From positions 62,001 through 126,000 of the forward strand of contig NZ_FPJO01000001.1 of the NCBI RefSeq assembly GCF_900119365.1: a stretch of DNA of 64,000 bases, read 5' to 3'. Below the pieces are notes generated by a model. The model saw only the letters and a program-made list of their open reading frames with translations. It searched no databases and was not told where the DNA came from. Below are positions 33,847 to 39,078 of the stretch, piece after piece (position 1 is the stretch's first letter; each line of letters starts with the position of its first letter). This DNA is from Streptomyces atratus. GTDB lineage: Bacteria; Actinomycetota; Actinomycetes; Streptomycetales; Streptomycetaceae. The translations under genes and the position numbers were made by a program.

Positions 33847-35058
33847 ATGACCGCTATGACCCCCGGCTCGAACATCCCTCTCTCCGCGGCCCGCGTGGCC
33901 GTGGACGTCTCCGCACCGGTGCGGCTCGACGTTTCGGGCCTGCTGCTCACCGCCGACGGCAAGGTGCGCTCCGACGACGACTTCATCTTCTACAACCAGC
34001 CCAACGGGCCCGGCGTGACCTACCGCTCCGGCGGCGGCACCGCGCCGGACGCGATCCTGGTGGACACCACCGCGGTCCCGCCCGGCATCGAGAAGATCGT
34101 CGTCACGGCGAGCCCGGATGCGGCGGGCCAGACCTTCCAGGGCATCGAGCCCACCGCGACGGTGCGCAACGCCGACGACGGCAGCGTGCTCGCCACGTTC
34201 ACCCCACCCCGGCTGGGTGCCGAGACGGCGCTCGTGGTCATCGAGGTCTATCTCCGCAACGGCGCCTGGAAGGCCCGCGCGGTCGGCCAGGGCTATGCGA
34301 ACGGGCTGGCCGGCATCGCCACGGACTTCGGCGTCTCGGTCGAGGAGGAGCCCGCCGCCGCACCGGCCCCCGCGCCCGTCGCGCCCCCGATGCCCGCCGC
34401 GGCCCCGGTGGACCCCCGGATCGCCGCGCCCCCGGCCCCCGCCGCCCCGCCGGCTCCGCCCGCCGCCCCGCCCGCCGGCGGCAAGATCAACCTCGACAAG
34501 GGCCGGGTCAGCCTCCAGAAGAACCAGACGGTCTCCCTGGTCAAGGGCGGCCGGCCGCTGCTCTCCCAGGTCAAGATGGGCCTCGGCTGGGAGCCCGCGT
34601 TCCGGGGCAAGGACATCGACCTCGACGCCTCCGTGATCGCCTACGGCCCCAACCGGAACCACCTGGACAGCTGCTACTTCGGCAGGCTCTCCATCCTGAA
34701 CGGCGCGATCAAGCACTCCGGCGACAACCTCACGGGCGAGGGCGCGGGTGACGACGAGGTGATCGTCGTGGACCTGGGCCGGATCCCGGCGGAGGCGACC
34801 GGGCTGGTCTTCACGGTCAACTCGTTCACCGGCCAGAAGTTCACCGAGGTCGCCAAGGCCTACTGCCGGCTGGTCGACGCGGCCACCGGCGAGGAGTTGG
34901 TCCGCTTCGACCTGACCGGCGCCGAGCCGCAGACCGGCGTGATGATGGCCAAGCTGATCAAGCAGTTCTCCGGCGAGTGGGAGATGACGGCCATGGGCGA
35001 CTTCGTGAAGTCGCGCACCGTCCGCGGCATGGTGAAGCCCGCCGCCCAGGCGCTGTAA
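33847..35058 (+). CDS. TerD-family protein with two TerD domains
   Basis: A 403-residue cytoplasmic protein of the tellurium-resistance/stress family. Two TerD-like beta-sandwich domains are present: residues about 1-160 (VRLDVSGLLLTADGKVRSDDDFIFYNQP) and about 215-403 (GWEPAFRGKDIDLDASVIAYG, GEGAGDDEVIVVDLGRIP, FTVNSFTGQKFTEVAKAYCRLVD). The DSD/DDD-type acidic loops bind calcium in characterised members. Between them lies a 55-residue Pro/Ala linker. In actinobacteria these proteins belong to a membrane-associated stress and chemical defence complex; no other ter gene is in the window. Confidence 0.93.
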   Translation: MTAMTPGSNIPLSAARVAVDVSAPVRLDVSGLLLTADGKVRSDDDFIFYNQPNGPGVTYRSGGGTAPDAILVDTTAVPPGIEKIVVTASPDAAGQTFQGIEPTATVRNADDGSVLATFTPPRLGAETALVVIEVYLRNGAWKARAVGQGYANGLAGIATDFGVSVEEEPAAAPAPAPVAPPMPAAAPVDPRIAAPPAPAAPPAPPAAPPAGGKINLDKGRVSLQKNQTVSLVKGGRPLLSQVKMGLGWEPAFRGKDIDLDASVIAYGPNRNHLDSCYFGRLSILNGAIKHSGDNLTGEGAGDDEVIVVDLGRIPAEATGLVFTVNSFTGQKFTEVAKAYCRLVDAATGEELVRFDLTGAEPQTGVMMAKLIKQFSGEWEMTAMGDFVKSRTVRGMVKPAAQAL

Positions 35059-35481: not shown

Positions 35482-37062
35482 TCAGCGGATCCAGGGCCAG
35501 TCCGCGTCCCGGCCCGCTTCCAGCAGCGGCACCATGCGGAACGCGGCGTCCGAAAGACCCCCGAAGGTGTGGCGCATCCCGTCGCCCGAAGGGGCGTGTC
35601 CGACCCGGTACCCGGCCAGGTTCCAGGTGTAGACGGGCACAGTGGCGGGCACCGCCGCGGTGGCGTCCGCGGCGTACGAGAACGACGCCTGCTCGTCGGT
35701 GACGATCAGCACCCGGTCATGGCCCCGGTAGTGCCGGCGCACCGCCTCCGCGGTGTTGGTGCCGCCGAGGTTGCCGAAGCGCTCCAGAACCTTCAGCACG
35801 GACTCACTCCGGCGATATGCGACCGGCGCACTGTTCGTACCGAACTGCACCAGATCGGCATCGGCCGCCCGCAGTGCCAGCGCCGTGCCGAAGATCGCGG
35901 CCGCGTCGGCCCGGTTGAGCTGCGAGCGGTCCGAGAGCGGCGACCACATCGAGCCCGAGCGGTCGACCAGGACCAGCGTCCGCCCCGGCAGGGCAGGCAC
36001 GTTGTCCAGCGCGTGGCCGAGCGCCTGCTCCAGCGGGTGGGCCCAGCGCAGCGAGGGCGCGTGCTGGTAGGCAGCGAGGTAGCGGAACGGGAACTGCTGG
36101 GACGCGGCGACCGCGGCCGGGTCGCAGATCCGCTCCGCCACCCGCGCGGCGACCTCGTCCGAGACGCCCGCCTCGTCGAAGTTGCGCAGATTGCGGATGA
36201 GCGCCATCGCGCCCATCGACGGGATCACCGCTTCCCAGGCCGTGGCGTCCATCGGCCCTTGCAGCCAGCCCGCCAGGGCCTCCCAGGTCATGCCCGCGGC
36301 GGCCAGCCGGTCCGCCCCGTCGGCGCTCTCGACCACGGCCCGCCGTTCCCCGGTGGGCAGTTCCATCAGCGCGCGGTGGGCGTTCAGGACCCGGTCCGAG
36401 ACCGGCACCACGGCCGTCTCGGGGTGGTGGCGGCGGTCGAGGGCGTACCGGAACAGCTCGCCCTGCCACGGCTTCTGTGGGTCGGGCGAGGCGTGCACCA
36501 GGTTCAGGATGTCGCCGAAGCGGTAGCCCTTGGACGCGGTGTCGTACTTCAGCAGCGACCTGCCGTTGTAGAGCCGGCGCACGGCATCGGCGATGCCACG
36601 CTTGACCGGCTTGGGCACGGCCCGGCCGTAGCGGGAGGTCCAGTACCCGAGGAGCTCCCCGGGCTCGTCGGCGCGCAGCAGGACGGAGTCGACGACCTGG
36701 CGGTTGGACGGTCCGTCCTCGGCGCCCGCGTCCAGCCGCGCCTTCACGTACTCGGCGGCGCCGACGATCGAGGCGGTACGCATCCGGCCGTCGCGGCGCA
36801 GCCAGTGCAGCAGGCCGGCGGTCCACTCGGGGTCACCGACGGCGAGCACCCGCACCAGTTCGGCGAAGCGCTCGTCGCGCTGCTCGCCGTCCTCGTAAAA
36901 GGTCTGCTGCGAAACGAAATTGGCGACCGCGAGCAGAAAAAGCTCGGAGCGGTTGTCACGCAGATGTCCCCGGCCGCCCTGATGGGTCGGCGCGGTGCGC
37001 CCGGTCGTCTTCACGGGCGAGGCGACACGGGGCCTGGTGGTGCGGGTGTTGAAGCGTGCCAT
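35482..37062 (-). CDS. rsr: TROVE-domain protein, bacterial Ro60 (Rsr)
   Basis: A 526-residue Ro60 homologue. The TROVE HEAT-repeat ring occupies about residues 25-355 (VANFVSQQTFYEDGEQRDERFAELV, GLLHWLRRDGRMRTASIVGA, SRYGRAVPKPVKRGIADAVRRLY, KYDTASKGYRFGDILNLVH), followed by a VWA-like domain with MIDAS DRSGSMWS and a complementary GGTNT loop. Ro binds Y RNAs on its outer surface and misfolded or single-stranded RNA ends in its central hole, and in Deinococcus works with PNPase. The ATG at 37062 has GGGGGA six bases upstream. Three Y-RNA-like genes lie just 5' on the same strand. Confidence 0.95.
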   Translation of the reverse strand: MARFNTRTTRPRVASPVKTTGRTAPTHQGGRGHLRDNRSELFLLAVANFVSQQTFYEDGEQRDERFAELVRVLAVGDPEWTAGLLHWLRRDGRMRTASIVGAAEYVKARLDAGAEDGPSNRQVVDSVLLRADEPGELLGYWTSRYGRAVPKPVKRGIADAVRRLYNGRSLLKYDTASKGYRFGDILNLVHASPDPQKPWQGELFRYALDRRHHPETAVVPVSDRVLNAHRALMELPTGERRAVVESADGADRLAAAGMTWEALAGWLQGPMDATAWEAVIPSMGAMALIRNLRNFDEAGVSDEVAARVAERICDPAAVAASQQFPFRYLAAYQHAPSLRWAHPLEQALGHALDNVPALPGRTLVLVDRSGSMWSPLSDRSQLNRADAAAIFGTALALRAADADLVQFGTNSAPVAYRRSESVLKVLERFGNLGGTNTAEAVRRHYRGHDRVLIVTDEQASFSYAADATAAVPATVPVYTWNLAGYRVGHAPSGDGMRHTFGGLSDAAFRMVPLLEAGRDADWPWIR

Positions 37063-37100
37063 GTGAATTCCCCCGAATTCATTGGGAGAAGGCACAGCGG

Positions 37101-37240
37101 AAAAGGGTGCCCGAGATCAGGAGTCGGCGACGGGCTCACTGATGCTCTACCCGATTGAGCTACCGGCCGTGGCCGGGCGGGACTCGAACCCGCAACCGTC
37201 AGTCCAATGGAAGTATCCGTCGCCTGCGCACCGGGCACCC
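37101..37240 (-). ncRNA. YrlA-type Y RNA 3, with permuted tRNA mimic
   Basis: About 136 nt closed by a 9-bp stem (GGGTGCCCG at 37240-37232 with CGGGCACCC at 37113-37105) and followed by TTTT. Next to the stem are the blocks shared with the two sister RNAs: 5' GGTGCGCAGGC and 3' CCGACTCCTGATCT, the likely Ro-binding region. The distal part holds a T arm (37193-37177, 5-bp stem, loop TTCGAGT), a short closed acceptor-like stem (37176-37163) and a D arm (37162-37143, GCTC/GAGC stem, G-rich loop), in that circularly permuted order. Ends are approximate. The rsr start codon is about 40 nt downstream. Confidence 0.85.
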
Positions 37241-37253
37241 CCCGGCGTCTGTG

Positions 37254-37322
37254 CCTCCCGAGATCAGAGTCGGCGGCGGCGGTTTCTTGGGAGGAAGTAG
37301 CCGCAGCCTGCGCACCGGGAGG
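37254..37322 (-). ncRNA. Compact Y RNA 2 lacking the tRNA-like module
   Basis: About 69 nt closed by a 7-bp stem (CCTCCCG at 37322-37316 with CGGGAGG at 37260-37254). It carries the same blocks as its neighbours, GGTGCGCAGGC on the 5' side, TACTTCC further in, and CCGACTCTGATCT on the 3' side, but the interior is only a short G/C stem and loop. No T or D arm is present. It would be a minimal Ro-binding RNA. Confidence 0.78.
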
Positions 37323-37352
37323 TGCCATGCAGTCATGCTGATGAAGTTGTGG

Positions 37353-37492
37353 GTGCCCAGAGATCAGGGTCGGCGGAACCGACGAAGGTGCTCTACCGAC
37401 TGAGCTACACCGGAACGGATCCGGTGGCGGGACTCGAACCCGCGACATCCCCATTATCAGTGGAAGTAGGTCCTGCCTGCGCACCTGGGCAC
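37353..37492 (-). ncRNA. YrlA-type Y RNA 1, with permuted tRNA mimic
   Basis: About 140 nt closed by an 8-bp stem (GTGCCCAG at 37492-37485 with CTGGGCAC at 37360-37353). Shared blocks GGTGCGCAGGC, TACTTCC and CCGACCCTGATCT are present. The mimic is nearly ideal: T arm 37443-37427 (17 bases identical to RNA 3), a 7-bp acceptor stem closed by a 5-base loop (37426-37408), then TA, and D arm 37407-37389 with GCTC/GAGC stem and AGTCGGTA loop containing the GG pair. These keep the nucleotides needed for the D-loop/T-loop elbow. TAGAGT at 37507-37502 could be its -10 element. Confidence 0.87.
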
Positions 37493-37515
37493 GGACAGGA
37501 CTCTAGAGGGATGCC

Positions 37516-37602: not shown

Positions 37603-39078
37603 TCAGTGGCGGTTCGGCTGGCGCTTCCACGGGCCGGTGATGGCGAGCATGATGCCCGGCGTCTGGATGTTGGCGTACAGCGTCCGGCCGTCGGGCGAGA
37701 ACGTGACTCCGGTGAACTCGCTGTACTCCGGCTCCTCCTCGCTGCCGATGTTCAGCTCGTTGCGCGCGATGGGATAGGTGCGGCCGCTCCCGGTCGCCCC
37801 GAAGAGGTGCTGGATGCCGTCGCCGTCCTCGGCGATGACCAGTCCGCCGTACGGCGAGACGGTGATGTTGTCCGGGCCGTCGAAGGCGCCGTCCTTCGAC
37901 GGGTCGGCGTTCACCCCGAGGAGCACCTTCAGCGTCAGCGTGCGGCGCTTGGGGTCGTAGAACCAGACCTGGCCGTCGTGCTGGGCGGGGCTCTCGGAGC
38001 GGGCGAACGAGGAGACGATGTAGGCGCCGCCGTCGCCCCACCACATGCCTTCGAGCTTGCGGGCGCGGGTGACCTCGCCGTCGGCGAACTGCTTGCGCAC
38101 CGAGACCGCCTTGGCGTCACGGTCGGGTACGTCGACCCAGTCCACGCCGTACACCGTGCCGATCTTCGTGGCGCGGGACAGGTCGTCGACGAACTTGCCG
38201 TTGCTGTCGAAGCACTTGGTGGCCTGGAGGACACCGGCGTCGTCGGCGAGCGTGCGCAGCTTGCCGCGGCCGTGCCGGAAGCCGTGCGGCGGGACCCAGC
38301 GGTAGAGCAGCCCGTTGGGGCCGGAGGCGTCCTCGGTCAGGTAGGCGTGGCCGAGCTTGGGGTCGATGACGACGGCCTCGTGGGCGTACCGGCCGAACGC
38401 CTTGATCGGGCGCGGGTCGCGGTTGGCGCGCTTGTCGTACGGGTCGACCTCGAAGACGTAGCCGTGGTCCTTGAGCAGGCCGTTCTTGCCGGCCCTGTCC
38501 TCGGTCTCCTCGCAGGTGAGCCAGGTGCCCCACGGGGTGGCGCCGCCGGCGCAGTTGGTGGACGTACCGGCGATGCCGACCCACTCGGCGGTACGGCCGT
38601 CGCGGCGGGTCTCCACGACGGTGCAGCCGCCGGCCGCGACCGGGTCGTAGACGAGGCCCTCGGCGAGCGGCACCGGGTGCTCCCAGCCGGCGCGGACGCC
38701 GCTGAGCTCGTGGTTGTTGACGAGCAGGGTGACGCCGCGCGGGCCCTCGAACGTGGCCGTGCCGTCGTGGTTGGAGGGGGTGAACTCACCGGACTCCAGC
38801 TTGGTGACACCGCTGTGGGTGATGACCTGGTACGAAAAGCCGGCGGGGAGCGCGAGTATGCCCTCGGGGTCGGCGATCAGCGGCCCGTAGCCGGGCTCGC
38901 GGCCGTGCCCATGACCGTGGTCGTGGCCGTGACCGTCGTGGCCGTCGTGGCCGTGCTTCGGGTCCCCGGCGGCCAGGGCGCCCGGTGCGGTGGCCAGTGC
39001 CGCGACGGTACCGGTCAATGCGATGCCGGCACCCGTGAGGGCGGACTGCTTGGTGAATTCCCTGCGTGTGAAGGGCAT
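37603..39078 (-). CDS. PhoX-type (DUF839) phosphatase, Tat-exported
   Basis: A 491-residue secreted protein. The twin-arginine signal is TRREFTKQSALTGAG, cleaved after a hydrophobic stretch near GALA. A striking His/Gly/Asp-rich segment of about 20 residues (repeats of GHDGHDGHG type) follows, possibly for metal capture. The body matches PhoX/DUF839 beta-propeller phosphatases (LLVNNHELSG, GTSTNCAGGATPWGTWLTCEE, YGRYAHEAVVID-like FGRYAHEAVVID, TEDASGPNGLLYRW), which use Fe and Ca. CCAGGAG is seven bases before the ATG. A possible PHO box is at 39131-39152, so phosphate control is plausible. Confidence 0.9.
   Translation of the reverse strand: MPFTRREFTKQSALTGAGIALTGTVAALATAPGALAAGDPKHGHDGHDGHGHDHGHGHGREPGYGPLIADPEGILALPAGFSYQVITHSGVTKLESGEFTPSNHDGTATFEGPRGVTLLVNNHELSGVRAGWEHPVPLAEGLVYDPVAAGGCTVVETRRDGRTAEWVGIAGTSTNCAGGATPWGTWLTCEETEDRAGKNGLLKDHGYVFEVDPYDKRANRDPRPIKAFGRYAHEAVVIDPKLGHAYLTEDASGPNGLLYRWVPPHGFRHGRGKLRTLADDAGVLQATKCFDSNGKFVDDLSRATKIGTVYGVDWVDVPDRDAKAVSVRKQFADGEVTRARKLEGMWWGDGGAYIVSSFARSESPAQHDGQVWFYDPKRRTLTLKVLLGVNADPSKDGAFDGPDNITVSPYGGLVIAEDGDGIQHLFGATGSGRTYPIARNELNIGSEEEPEYSEFTGVTFSPDGRTLYANIQTPGIMLAITGPWKRQPNRH

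What the first reader, a model, noticed from the sequence alone, without database searches (positions are those of the whole stretch)
37101..37492. Tandem cluster of three Y-RNA-like genes next to a bacterial Ro60 gene
On the minus strand three RNA units share GGTGCGCAGGC on the 5' side, TACTTCC inside and CCGAC-CTGATCT on the 3' side, each closed by a different but perfectly complementary stem (8, 7 and 9 bp). Compensatory differences in the closing stems with fixed sequence blocks inside indicate selection on RNA structure and a common protein ligand. The adjacent gene encodes TROVE/Ro60, the known Y RNA partner. Three in tandem, of two size classes, is an unusual arrangement.
Basis: partly seen in the sequence, partly recalled or inferred. 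Interest (0 to 1): 0.93.

Follow-up and report, generated by a model that had tools for sequence, protein, structure and literature searches.

The report
Y RNAs carrying scrambled tRNA copies
Next to a bacterial Ro60-type gene, in what is very likely a Streptomyces genome, lie three conserved stretches that are likely RNA genes whose products would bind that protein; two of them carry a tRNA-like part with its pieces in rotated order, and one even keeps an anticodon-like loop whose decoding letters keep changing between species while its other letters hardly change, which suggests, but does not prove, that it would act as a stand-in for real tRNA.

Summary
Three minus-strand units (A 37353-37492, B 37253-37323, C 37105-37240) lie upstream of a TROVE/Ro60 gene. 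All 44 TROVE loci first examined have at least one such unit upstream, against 6 finder hits in 317 kb elsewhere. Stems in all three covary. The Y RNA reading is well supported by comparison; expression and Rsr binding are untested. C is cut in the anticodon stem like YrlA. A keeps a 5-bp, 7-nt anticodon-like hairpin at exact tRNA spacing (89 of 97 A modules). In its loop, positions 34-35 change most of the positions counted (20 and 15 changes on a TROVE tree), while 32, 33, 36 and 38 did not change (nearly so in a second, overlapping set). The tRNA tertiary pair 15-48 fits in 183 of 183 modules. Other loci carry Glu-like or Leu-like modules. One promoter-like box precedes only the first unit. 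Three in tandem is common. Verdict: new variant of bacterial Y RNA.

The parts
37353..37492 (-). Unit A: predicted Y RNA with a four-arm permuted tRNA-like module
   Evidence: Rfam YrlA 41.5 bits over 37387-37450 (cut-off 69)
37449..37465 (-). Unit A anticodon-like arm TTCCA-CTGATAA-TGGGG (tRNA positions 27-43)
37427..37443 (-). Unit A T-arm GCGGG-TTCGAGT-CCCGC
37408..37426 (-). Unit A acceptor stem, 7 bp, closed by a 5-nt loop
37390..37405 (-). Unit A D-arm GCTC-AGTCGGTA-GAGC
37253..37323 (-). Unit B: short predicted Y RNA without tRNA-like module
37105..37240 (-). Unit C: predicted Y RNA with YrlA-like permuted module, cut in the anticodon stem
   Evidence: Rfam YrlA 57.9 bits over 37124-37223 (cut-off 69)
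37177..37193 (-). Unit C T-arm
37144..37160 (-). Unit C D-arm
37500..37505 (-). Promoter -10-like box TAGAGT before the first unit
   Evidence: sequence; a TAnnnT box before the first unit in 70 of 80 loci, before later units in 1 of 116; the consensus scan found no full promoter here
35482..37062 (-). TROVE/Ro60-type (Rsr-like) protein gene, 526 aa, ATG at 37060-37062
   Evidence: the query used in most calls, 35485-37059, starts at residue 2

Best explanation
The three units are conserved, covarying structures upstream of a TROVE (Ro60-type) gene and likely make three Y RNAs that would be bound by that protein, two of them with a tRNA-like module in circularly permuted order that is predicted to fold like tRNA. 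Predicted mechanism: one promoter before the first unit would make a common transcript that is then cut into A, B and C (inferred). The Rsr ring would hold the shared stem and boxes. The permuted modules of A and C would present a tRNA-shaped surface to PNPase or to enzymes that handle tRNA, while the bare B would occupy or gate Rsr without such a surface. In A the module also shows an anticodon-like loop with C32, U33, U36, A37 and A38 nearly fixed and 34-35 free; it would therefore be read by something that senses the anticodon loop but not the codon identity, such as a modifying enzyme (t6A37 needs U36-A37, recalled) or an anticodon nuclease for which it would be bait.
For: TROVE gene next door. 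Upstream units at 44 of 44 TROVE loci chosen by protein alone and at 80 of 80 named loci; 6 hits in 317 kb of control sequence. Strong model-A matches (E < 1e-15) in 31 of 39 genomes with a long TROVE match and 0 of 22 without. Covariation: A 15/37, B 6/18, C 16/35 pairs with double changes, each reached by 0/500 shuffles; the C anticodon stem has double changes in 5 of 5 pairs. A arm: 89 of 97 modules have 5/5 pairs at loop 7 and variable 5, the next-best length combination 19; pair 30-40 switched between C-G and G-C at least 3 times. Loop: 34 and 35 changed at least 20 and 15 times, 32, 33, 36, 38 none, 37 three (60 arms). Tertiary pair 15-48 fits in 97/97 A, 37/37 class I C, 23/23 Glu-like and 26/26 Leu-like; it varies usefully only in C (23 A-U, 14 G-C, 6 joint switches). 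Single promoter-like box: 70 of 80 first units, 1 of 116 later units, 12 of 1600 random windows. PNPase, RtcB and TsaD genes are in the same genome.
Against: No transcript or protein-binding data. Both modules score below the Rfam YrlA cut-off, and 0 of 148 genomes of the class reach it. ARAGORN on de-permuted modules (26/26) does not prove the anticodon arm: with shuffled arms it still calls 1087 of 1170. The base of the A hairpin is two U-G pairs made by the UUC of a box that all three units share; the conserved CC after the D-arm could pair with G42-G43 instead, and one sequence (L049) would fit that (by eye). The sign test for the 15-48 switches reaches only p 0.0625 on 5 supported pairs. 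In the second set 36 changed 3 times and 37 six times. Folding energy of C is no better than shuffles. The mechanism steps (tethering, bait, t6A) are inferred.
Confidence: 0.8

Rival explanations
1. Ordinary YrlA-type Y RNAs; the hairpin in A is only a spacer stem that happens to have tRNA-like lengths and is not read as an anticodon arm.
For: UACUUC is shared by all three units, so part of the stem is fixed for another reason; B may also have a weak UUC..GAA hairpin there (73% of cells paired, no double change); ARAGORN does not discriminate.
Against: Exact tRNA spacing in 89 of 97 A (variable 5) and 19 of 23 Glu-like modules (variable 4, as in the host tRNA-Glu); the loops match host tRNA loops (CTCATAA Met, CTGATAA Ile, CTCTTAA Lys, CTGTTAA Asn) with 32, 33, 36, 38 unchanged and the 34-35 pair of letters changing at least 30 times.
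Confidence: 0.25
2. A structured 5' leader of the TROVE mRNA that autoregulates the gene (Rsr binding its own leader), rather than free RNAs.
For: Same strand, 42 bases from unit C to the start codon, no terminator found between, one promoter-like box for all.
Against: Three Glu-like units of the same build lie in stretches of 6.2 kb without a TROVE match (best E 0.49), each followed by a terminator-like hairpin (by eye); units are lost singly, which a leader switch would not easily allow.
Confidence: 0.12
3. Decayed or tandem tRNA genes, not Y RNAs.
For: Weak YrlA matches away from TROVE mostly lie across two neighbouring tRNA genes, such as two tRNA-Asn in this genome; a permuted module has the layout of a junction of two tRNA genes.
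Against: No tRNA gene found in the window; closing stem and inner helix covary; the place beside TROVE is kept.
Confidence: 0.02

Closest known systems
YrlA (Rfam RF02553), bacterial Y RNA of Salmonella and relatives
   Same: Next to Rsr/Ro60; long closing stem; permuted T-arm, acceptor, D-arm module; C matches over the whole model. YrlA is described with D, T and acceptor arms and as a DusA and TruB substrate (PMC8394870, passages).
   Different: Both matches are below Rfam's cut-off. The Rfam consensus shown has no hairpin 5' of the T-arm; A has one with tRNA spacing, so its tRNA is cut between D-arm and anticodon arm, not in the anticodon stem. B has no module.
Deinococcus radiodurans Y RNA in RYPER (Rsr-Y RNA-PNPase)
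   Same: Y RNA held by Rsr; tethering of PNPase is its described role (PMC4726728 and PMC8394870, passages).
   Different: Tethering is untested here; B lacks the module that would tether.
Salmonella rsr-yrlBA-rtcBA RNA repair operon
   Same: Y RNAs with Rsr. The authors suggest that the YrlA tRNA-like domain may be a competitive inhibitor of an anticodon nuclease (PMC7790460, passages).
   Different: Fragments of YrlA were not detected there, so it was taken not to be a substrate. RtcB here is on another contig. A shows an intact anticodon-like loop; C does not.
Ro-like genes of Streptomyces, Gordonia and Arthrobacter phages
   Same: Unit boxes upstream of the Ro-like gene in 7 of 9 records looked at, five of them in L275, L277 and L278, four in L276 and L282.
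   Different: Boxes diverged (GATGCG); often inside tRNA arrays; none found by this pattern in L279 and L283, though L283 shows TACTTC units by eye.
Permuted tRNA genes of algae and archaea (recalled)
   Same: tRNA halves in reversed order.
   Different: Here the module sits inside a Y RNA stem and its acceptor ends are joined by a loop, with no free CCA end to charge.

Membership tests
Bacterial Y RNA (YrlA-type) | Encoded beside a Ro60/Rsr (TROVE) gene | tested here: met
   upstream at 44 of 44 and 80 of 80 TROVE loci
Bacterial Y RNA (YrlA-type) | Long stem pairing the 5' and 3' ends, conserved as structure | tested here: met
Bacterial Y RNA (YrlA-type) | tRNA-like module with D, T and acceptor arms | tested here: met
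   met for A and C; not met for unit B
Bacterial Y RNA (YrlA-type) | Reaches the Rfam RF02553 gathering score (69 bits) | tested here: not met
   57.9 and 41.5 bits; 0 of 148 genomes of the class reach it. So not filed as RF02553, but as a variant of the wider kind
Bacterial Y RNA (YrlA-type) | Bound by Rsr in cells | not testable with these tools
   needs pulldown or CLIP
Bacterial Y RNA (YrlA-type) | Tethers PNPase (RYPER) | not testable with these tools
   PNPase gene is present; tethering untested
Bacterial Y RNA (YrlA-type) | Carries tRNA modifications | not testable with these tools
   needs RNA mass spectrometry or sequencing
tRNA gene | Detected as a tRNA gene in native order | tested here: not met
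   0 tRNA genes in the window

The most novel reading that the evidence does not exclude
Actinobacterial Ro60 particles use a swappable set of whole-tRNA copies, permuted and displayed on a Y RNA scaffold: Met/Ile/Lys-like with an anticodon loop (A), Glu-like with its own loop and 4-nt variable region, Leu-like with mostly a long variable arm, or none (B). The loop of A keeps the features a nuclease or modifier would read but changes its two codon-specific bases most of all positions counted, as expected of bait that follows changing anticodon nucleases.
Probability: 0.3. Interest if true: 0.85.

Novelty: new variant of a known kind. Interest (0 to 1): 0.62.

Why it matters
Bacterial Y RNAs are known tRNA mimics, but in the passages I could read the mimicry is described for the D, T and acceptor arms. 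An intact anticodon-like loop with fixed context and free decoding bases, replaced in other loci by Glu-like or Leu-like modules, would make the open question of what the tRNA-like domain is for directly testable: whether it docks PNPase, binds modifying enzymes, or baits anticodon nucleases as suggested in PMC7790460. It also shows why Rfam's cut-off misses these genes and why some phage copies are labelled as tRNA.

Tried and rejected
ARAGORN on de-permuted modules looked decisive (26/26 against 0 of 520 whole shuffles; 99/99 and 18/18) but the sharper control failed: with only the arm shuffled 1087 of 1170 are still called, with genomic 17-mers 952 of 1170, and 24 of 28 class I C modules cut the same way. 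I dropped it as proof of the anticodon arm. In native order 5 of 52 modules are also called.

Folding energies were not informative. Rfam YrlA hits across the class were rejected as a survey: none reaches the cut-off, and of the 30 loci returned 17 have no TROVE match in the stretch held (1.5 kb each side); 14 of these 17 lie across two neighbouring tRNA genes. Model A also gives a near-universal hit near E 1e-10; I take it for the same tandem tRNA genes, but the places of those weak hits were not listed, so this is inferred, and I counted only E < 1e-15. A 7-nt hairpin in B is not supported by covariation (helix 3). The nearest host tRNA for A is mixed (Met 44, Thr 35 of 97), for Glu-like modules clear (Glu 18 of 20); the comparison used 52 tRNA sequences from 51 of the stretches fetched, not surely all of the 67 matches.

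Rows dropped: three A ends found wrongly were reset; alignment A3 took 30 of 33 C units, A4 20 of 33 (class I D-arm). Modules with fewer than 6 of 7 acceptor pairs were not parsed, which leaves out the window's own C (its 15-48 pair, A-U, read by eye). Of 101 A-like modules, four with a Glu-like D-arm were moved out, leaving 97; 66 had a usable TROVE stretch for the tree, 60 of them an exact arm. D-arm and acceptor-loop positions were not counted for rate. The second set overlaps the first in species, so it is a check, not an independent sample; the unit-type labels printed there can call an A unit Glu and were not used.

Literature: the key paper (Chen 2014, RNA 20:1715), Wang 2018 and Sim and Wolin 2018 were not held; what they say beyond citations is recalled. 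Searches for Streptomyces with Y RNA, Ro60 or TROVE found no paper or listed none on Streptomyces Y RNAs among the titles shown (20 of 36; 1 of 1; 15 of 41) in this partial library; Chen 2014 may list Streptomyces among its species.

Full report
What is there. On the minus strand between 37105 and 37492 lie three units, A, B and C, in that order of transcription, ending 42 bases before the start codon of a 526-residue TROVE protein. Two solved TROVE-domain proteins are relatives by sequence. The best named matches are Streptomyces, 97% identical in S. gelaticus.

A and C contain tRNA sequence in permuted order: T-arm, acceptor stem closed by a short loop, then D-arm. Rfam's YrlA model matches C over its full length (57.9 bits) and A in the module (41.5 bits), both under the cut-off of 69; at the cut-off nothing is found in the window. 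B has no module.

Conservation. A protein search drew 61 genomes of the genus; 44 have some TROVE match, 39 a long one. I read upstream of 44 TROVE loci (30, 14). All 44 have one to three units, 103 in all: 26 A, 42 B, 33 C, 2 others. The same finder gives 6 hits in 317 kb elsewhere in these loci. Units are lost in different combinations: A in L010, B in L020, C in L018 and L038, B and C in L034. With a covariance model of A, matches under 1e-15 occur in 31 of the 39 genomes and in 0 of the 22 others (threshold set after seeing a background near 1e-10). The eight genomes with a long TROVE match but no such hit still have B, C or other units upstream. In 80 named loci, the best 80 of 522, all have at least one unit box: 40 three, 36 two, 4 one.

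Structure. On 26 A units 15 of 37 pairs have changes on both sides, on 42 B units 6 of 18, on 20 class I C units 16 of 35; no shuffle of 500 reaches these counts and slid controls reach at most 6, 3 and 4. The outer two pairs of A's closing stem are not conserved. The anticodon stem of C, whose strands flank the whole module, has double changes in all 5 pairs. The tRNA tertiary pair between positions 15 and 48 is G-C or A-U in 97 of 97 A, 37 of 37 class I C, 23 of 23 Glu-like and 26 of 26 Leu-like modules. It is nearly constant in A, Glu-like and Leu-like modules and so tells little there; in C both kinds occur (23 and 14; shuffles reach at most 29 of 37) and both bases switch together 6 times on the TROVE tree, though the sign test on 5 supported pairs only reaches p 0.0625. 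This points to a tRNA-like fold.

The anticodon-like arm of A. Directly before the 5-nt variable region stands a hairpin UUCCA-CUGAUAA-UGGGG. Over 97 A modules 89 have all five pairs at loop 7 and variable 5; other length combinations reach at most 19. The stem changes in step: UUCCA/UGGGG, UUCGA/UCGGG, UUCCG/CGGGG, UUCGU/ACGGG. On a tree of the neighbouring TROVE proteins (60 exact arms) positions 34 and 35 changed at least 20 and 15 times, the most of the positions counted, while 32, 33, 36 and 38 did not change and 37 changed three times. The common loops equal those of host tRNAs for Met, Ile, Lys, Asn and Arg, which read codons that begin with A. In the second, overlapping set of 54 arms the counts are 16 and 18 for 34 and 35, 0 for 32, 33 and 38, 3 for 36 and 6 for 37, with pairs 30-40 and 31-39 showing 5 and 4 changes on both sides. 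ARAGORN calls all de-permuted modules tRNA but also most with shuffled arms, so it is no evidence for the arm. The hairpin's two basal U-G pairs are the weak point; a competing pairing of the CC after the D-arm with G42-G43 is not excluded.

Other modules in the same scaffold. Leu-like modules have the D-arm start TGGCGGAA (26 units); 22 have a long variable region and four (L031, L096, L108, L136) a short one, by eye. Glu-like modules have the tRNA-Glu D-arm, and in 19 of 23 a 5-bp, 7-nt arm with a 4-nt variable region as in host tRNA-Glu; the commonest loops are CTCTCAA and CTGTCAA; the nearest host tRNA is Glu in 18 of 20. Three Glu-like units read in context lie in 6.2-kb stretches without a TROVE match, each followed by a GC-rich hairpin. 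In another family of the order 9 of 13 TROVE loci read show only a short unit (L202-L214). Of nine phage records with Ro-like genes, seven show one to five boxes upstream.

Expression. A TAnnnT box ends 5 to 16 bases before the closing stem of the first unit in 70 of 80 loci, before later units in 1 of 116, and in 12 of 1600 random windows. As the first unit is not always A, one promoter for the array, then processing, is the simplest reading (inferred). A consensus scan of the window found no full promoter or terminator.

How it likely works. Inferred: Rsr holds the common stem and boxes; the module offers a tRNA surface. Known roles for comparison are tethering of PNPase and modification by DusA and TruB (PMC8394870 and PMC4726728, passages), and a suggestion that YrlA could inhibit an anticodon nuclease (PMC7790460, passages). 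PNPase, RtcB and TsaD genes are in this genome. The pattern in A, fixed context and free decoding bases, favours a reader of the loop that ignores the codon, or bait whose codon bases are under change; which of these is untested.

Novelty. Bacterial Y RNAs, their tRNA mimicry and their place beside Rsr are known. The four-arm permutation with an evolving anticodon-like loop and the exchange of whole tRNA types appear new in what I could read, but the main 2014 survey was not readable here, and searches cover only an open-licence library of which I saw listings and some passages.

Noticed in passing
L275 1271-1344, L278 1266-1340, L280 1198-1269, L283 1242-1332 (phage records OR725492, PP725410, NC_073474, OQ921725): tRNA genes annotated just upstream of Ro-like genes (Ser gct, Arg cct, Arg tct, Pro tgg) lie on the 5' part of Y RNA-like units, so they look mislabelled; 4 of 5 such annotations checked.
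   Followed up: partly
G000:C59:723875-724026 (L224): Two tandem tRNA-Asn genes match the YrlA model weakly because a junction of two tRNA genes has the permuted layout; a possible origin of the modules.
   Followed up: partly
L221, L222, L223: Glu-like Y RNA units in 6.2-kb stretches without a TROVE match, each followed by a terminator-like hairpin.
   Followed up: partly
window 37065-37080 and other loci: Inverted repeat GAATTC-n-GAATTC at the ribosome-binding site of the TROVE gene, in 63 of 80 loci; it could control translation.
   Followed up: no
L039, L041-L044, L046, L219; L202, L203, L205-L207, L209, L210, L212, L213: Some TROVE genes show only a short, module-less unit upstream.
   Followed up: partly
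L065: A Y RNA-like unit with a four-arm module near a cluster of tRNA genes, no TROVE match in the 3.1 kb held.
   Followed up: no
L279 (phage Kela): Ro-like gene directly after an RNA ligase gene, with no unit box found upstream by pattern; recalls the RNA repair link.
   Followed up: no
window 33847-35058 and 37606-39078: Neighbours of the TROVE gene encode a TerD-domain protein and a PhoX-type phosphatase.
   Followed up: no
L012, L048: TROVE matches with an in-frame stop (one TGA each) in two genomes.
   Followed up: no
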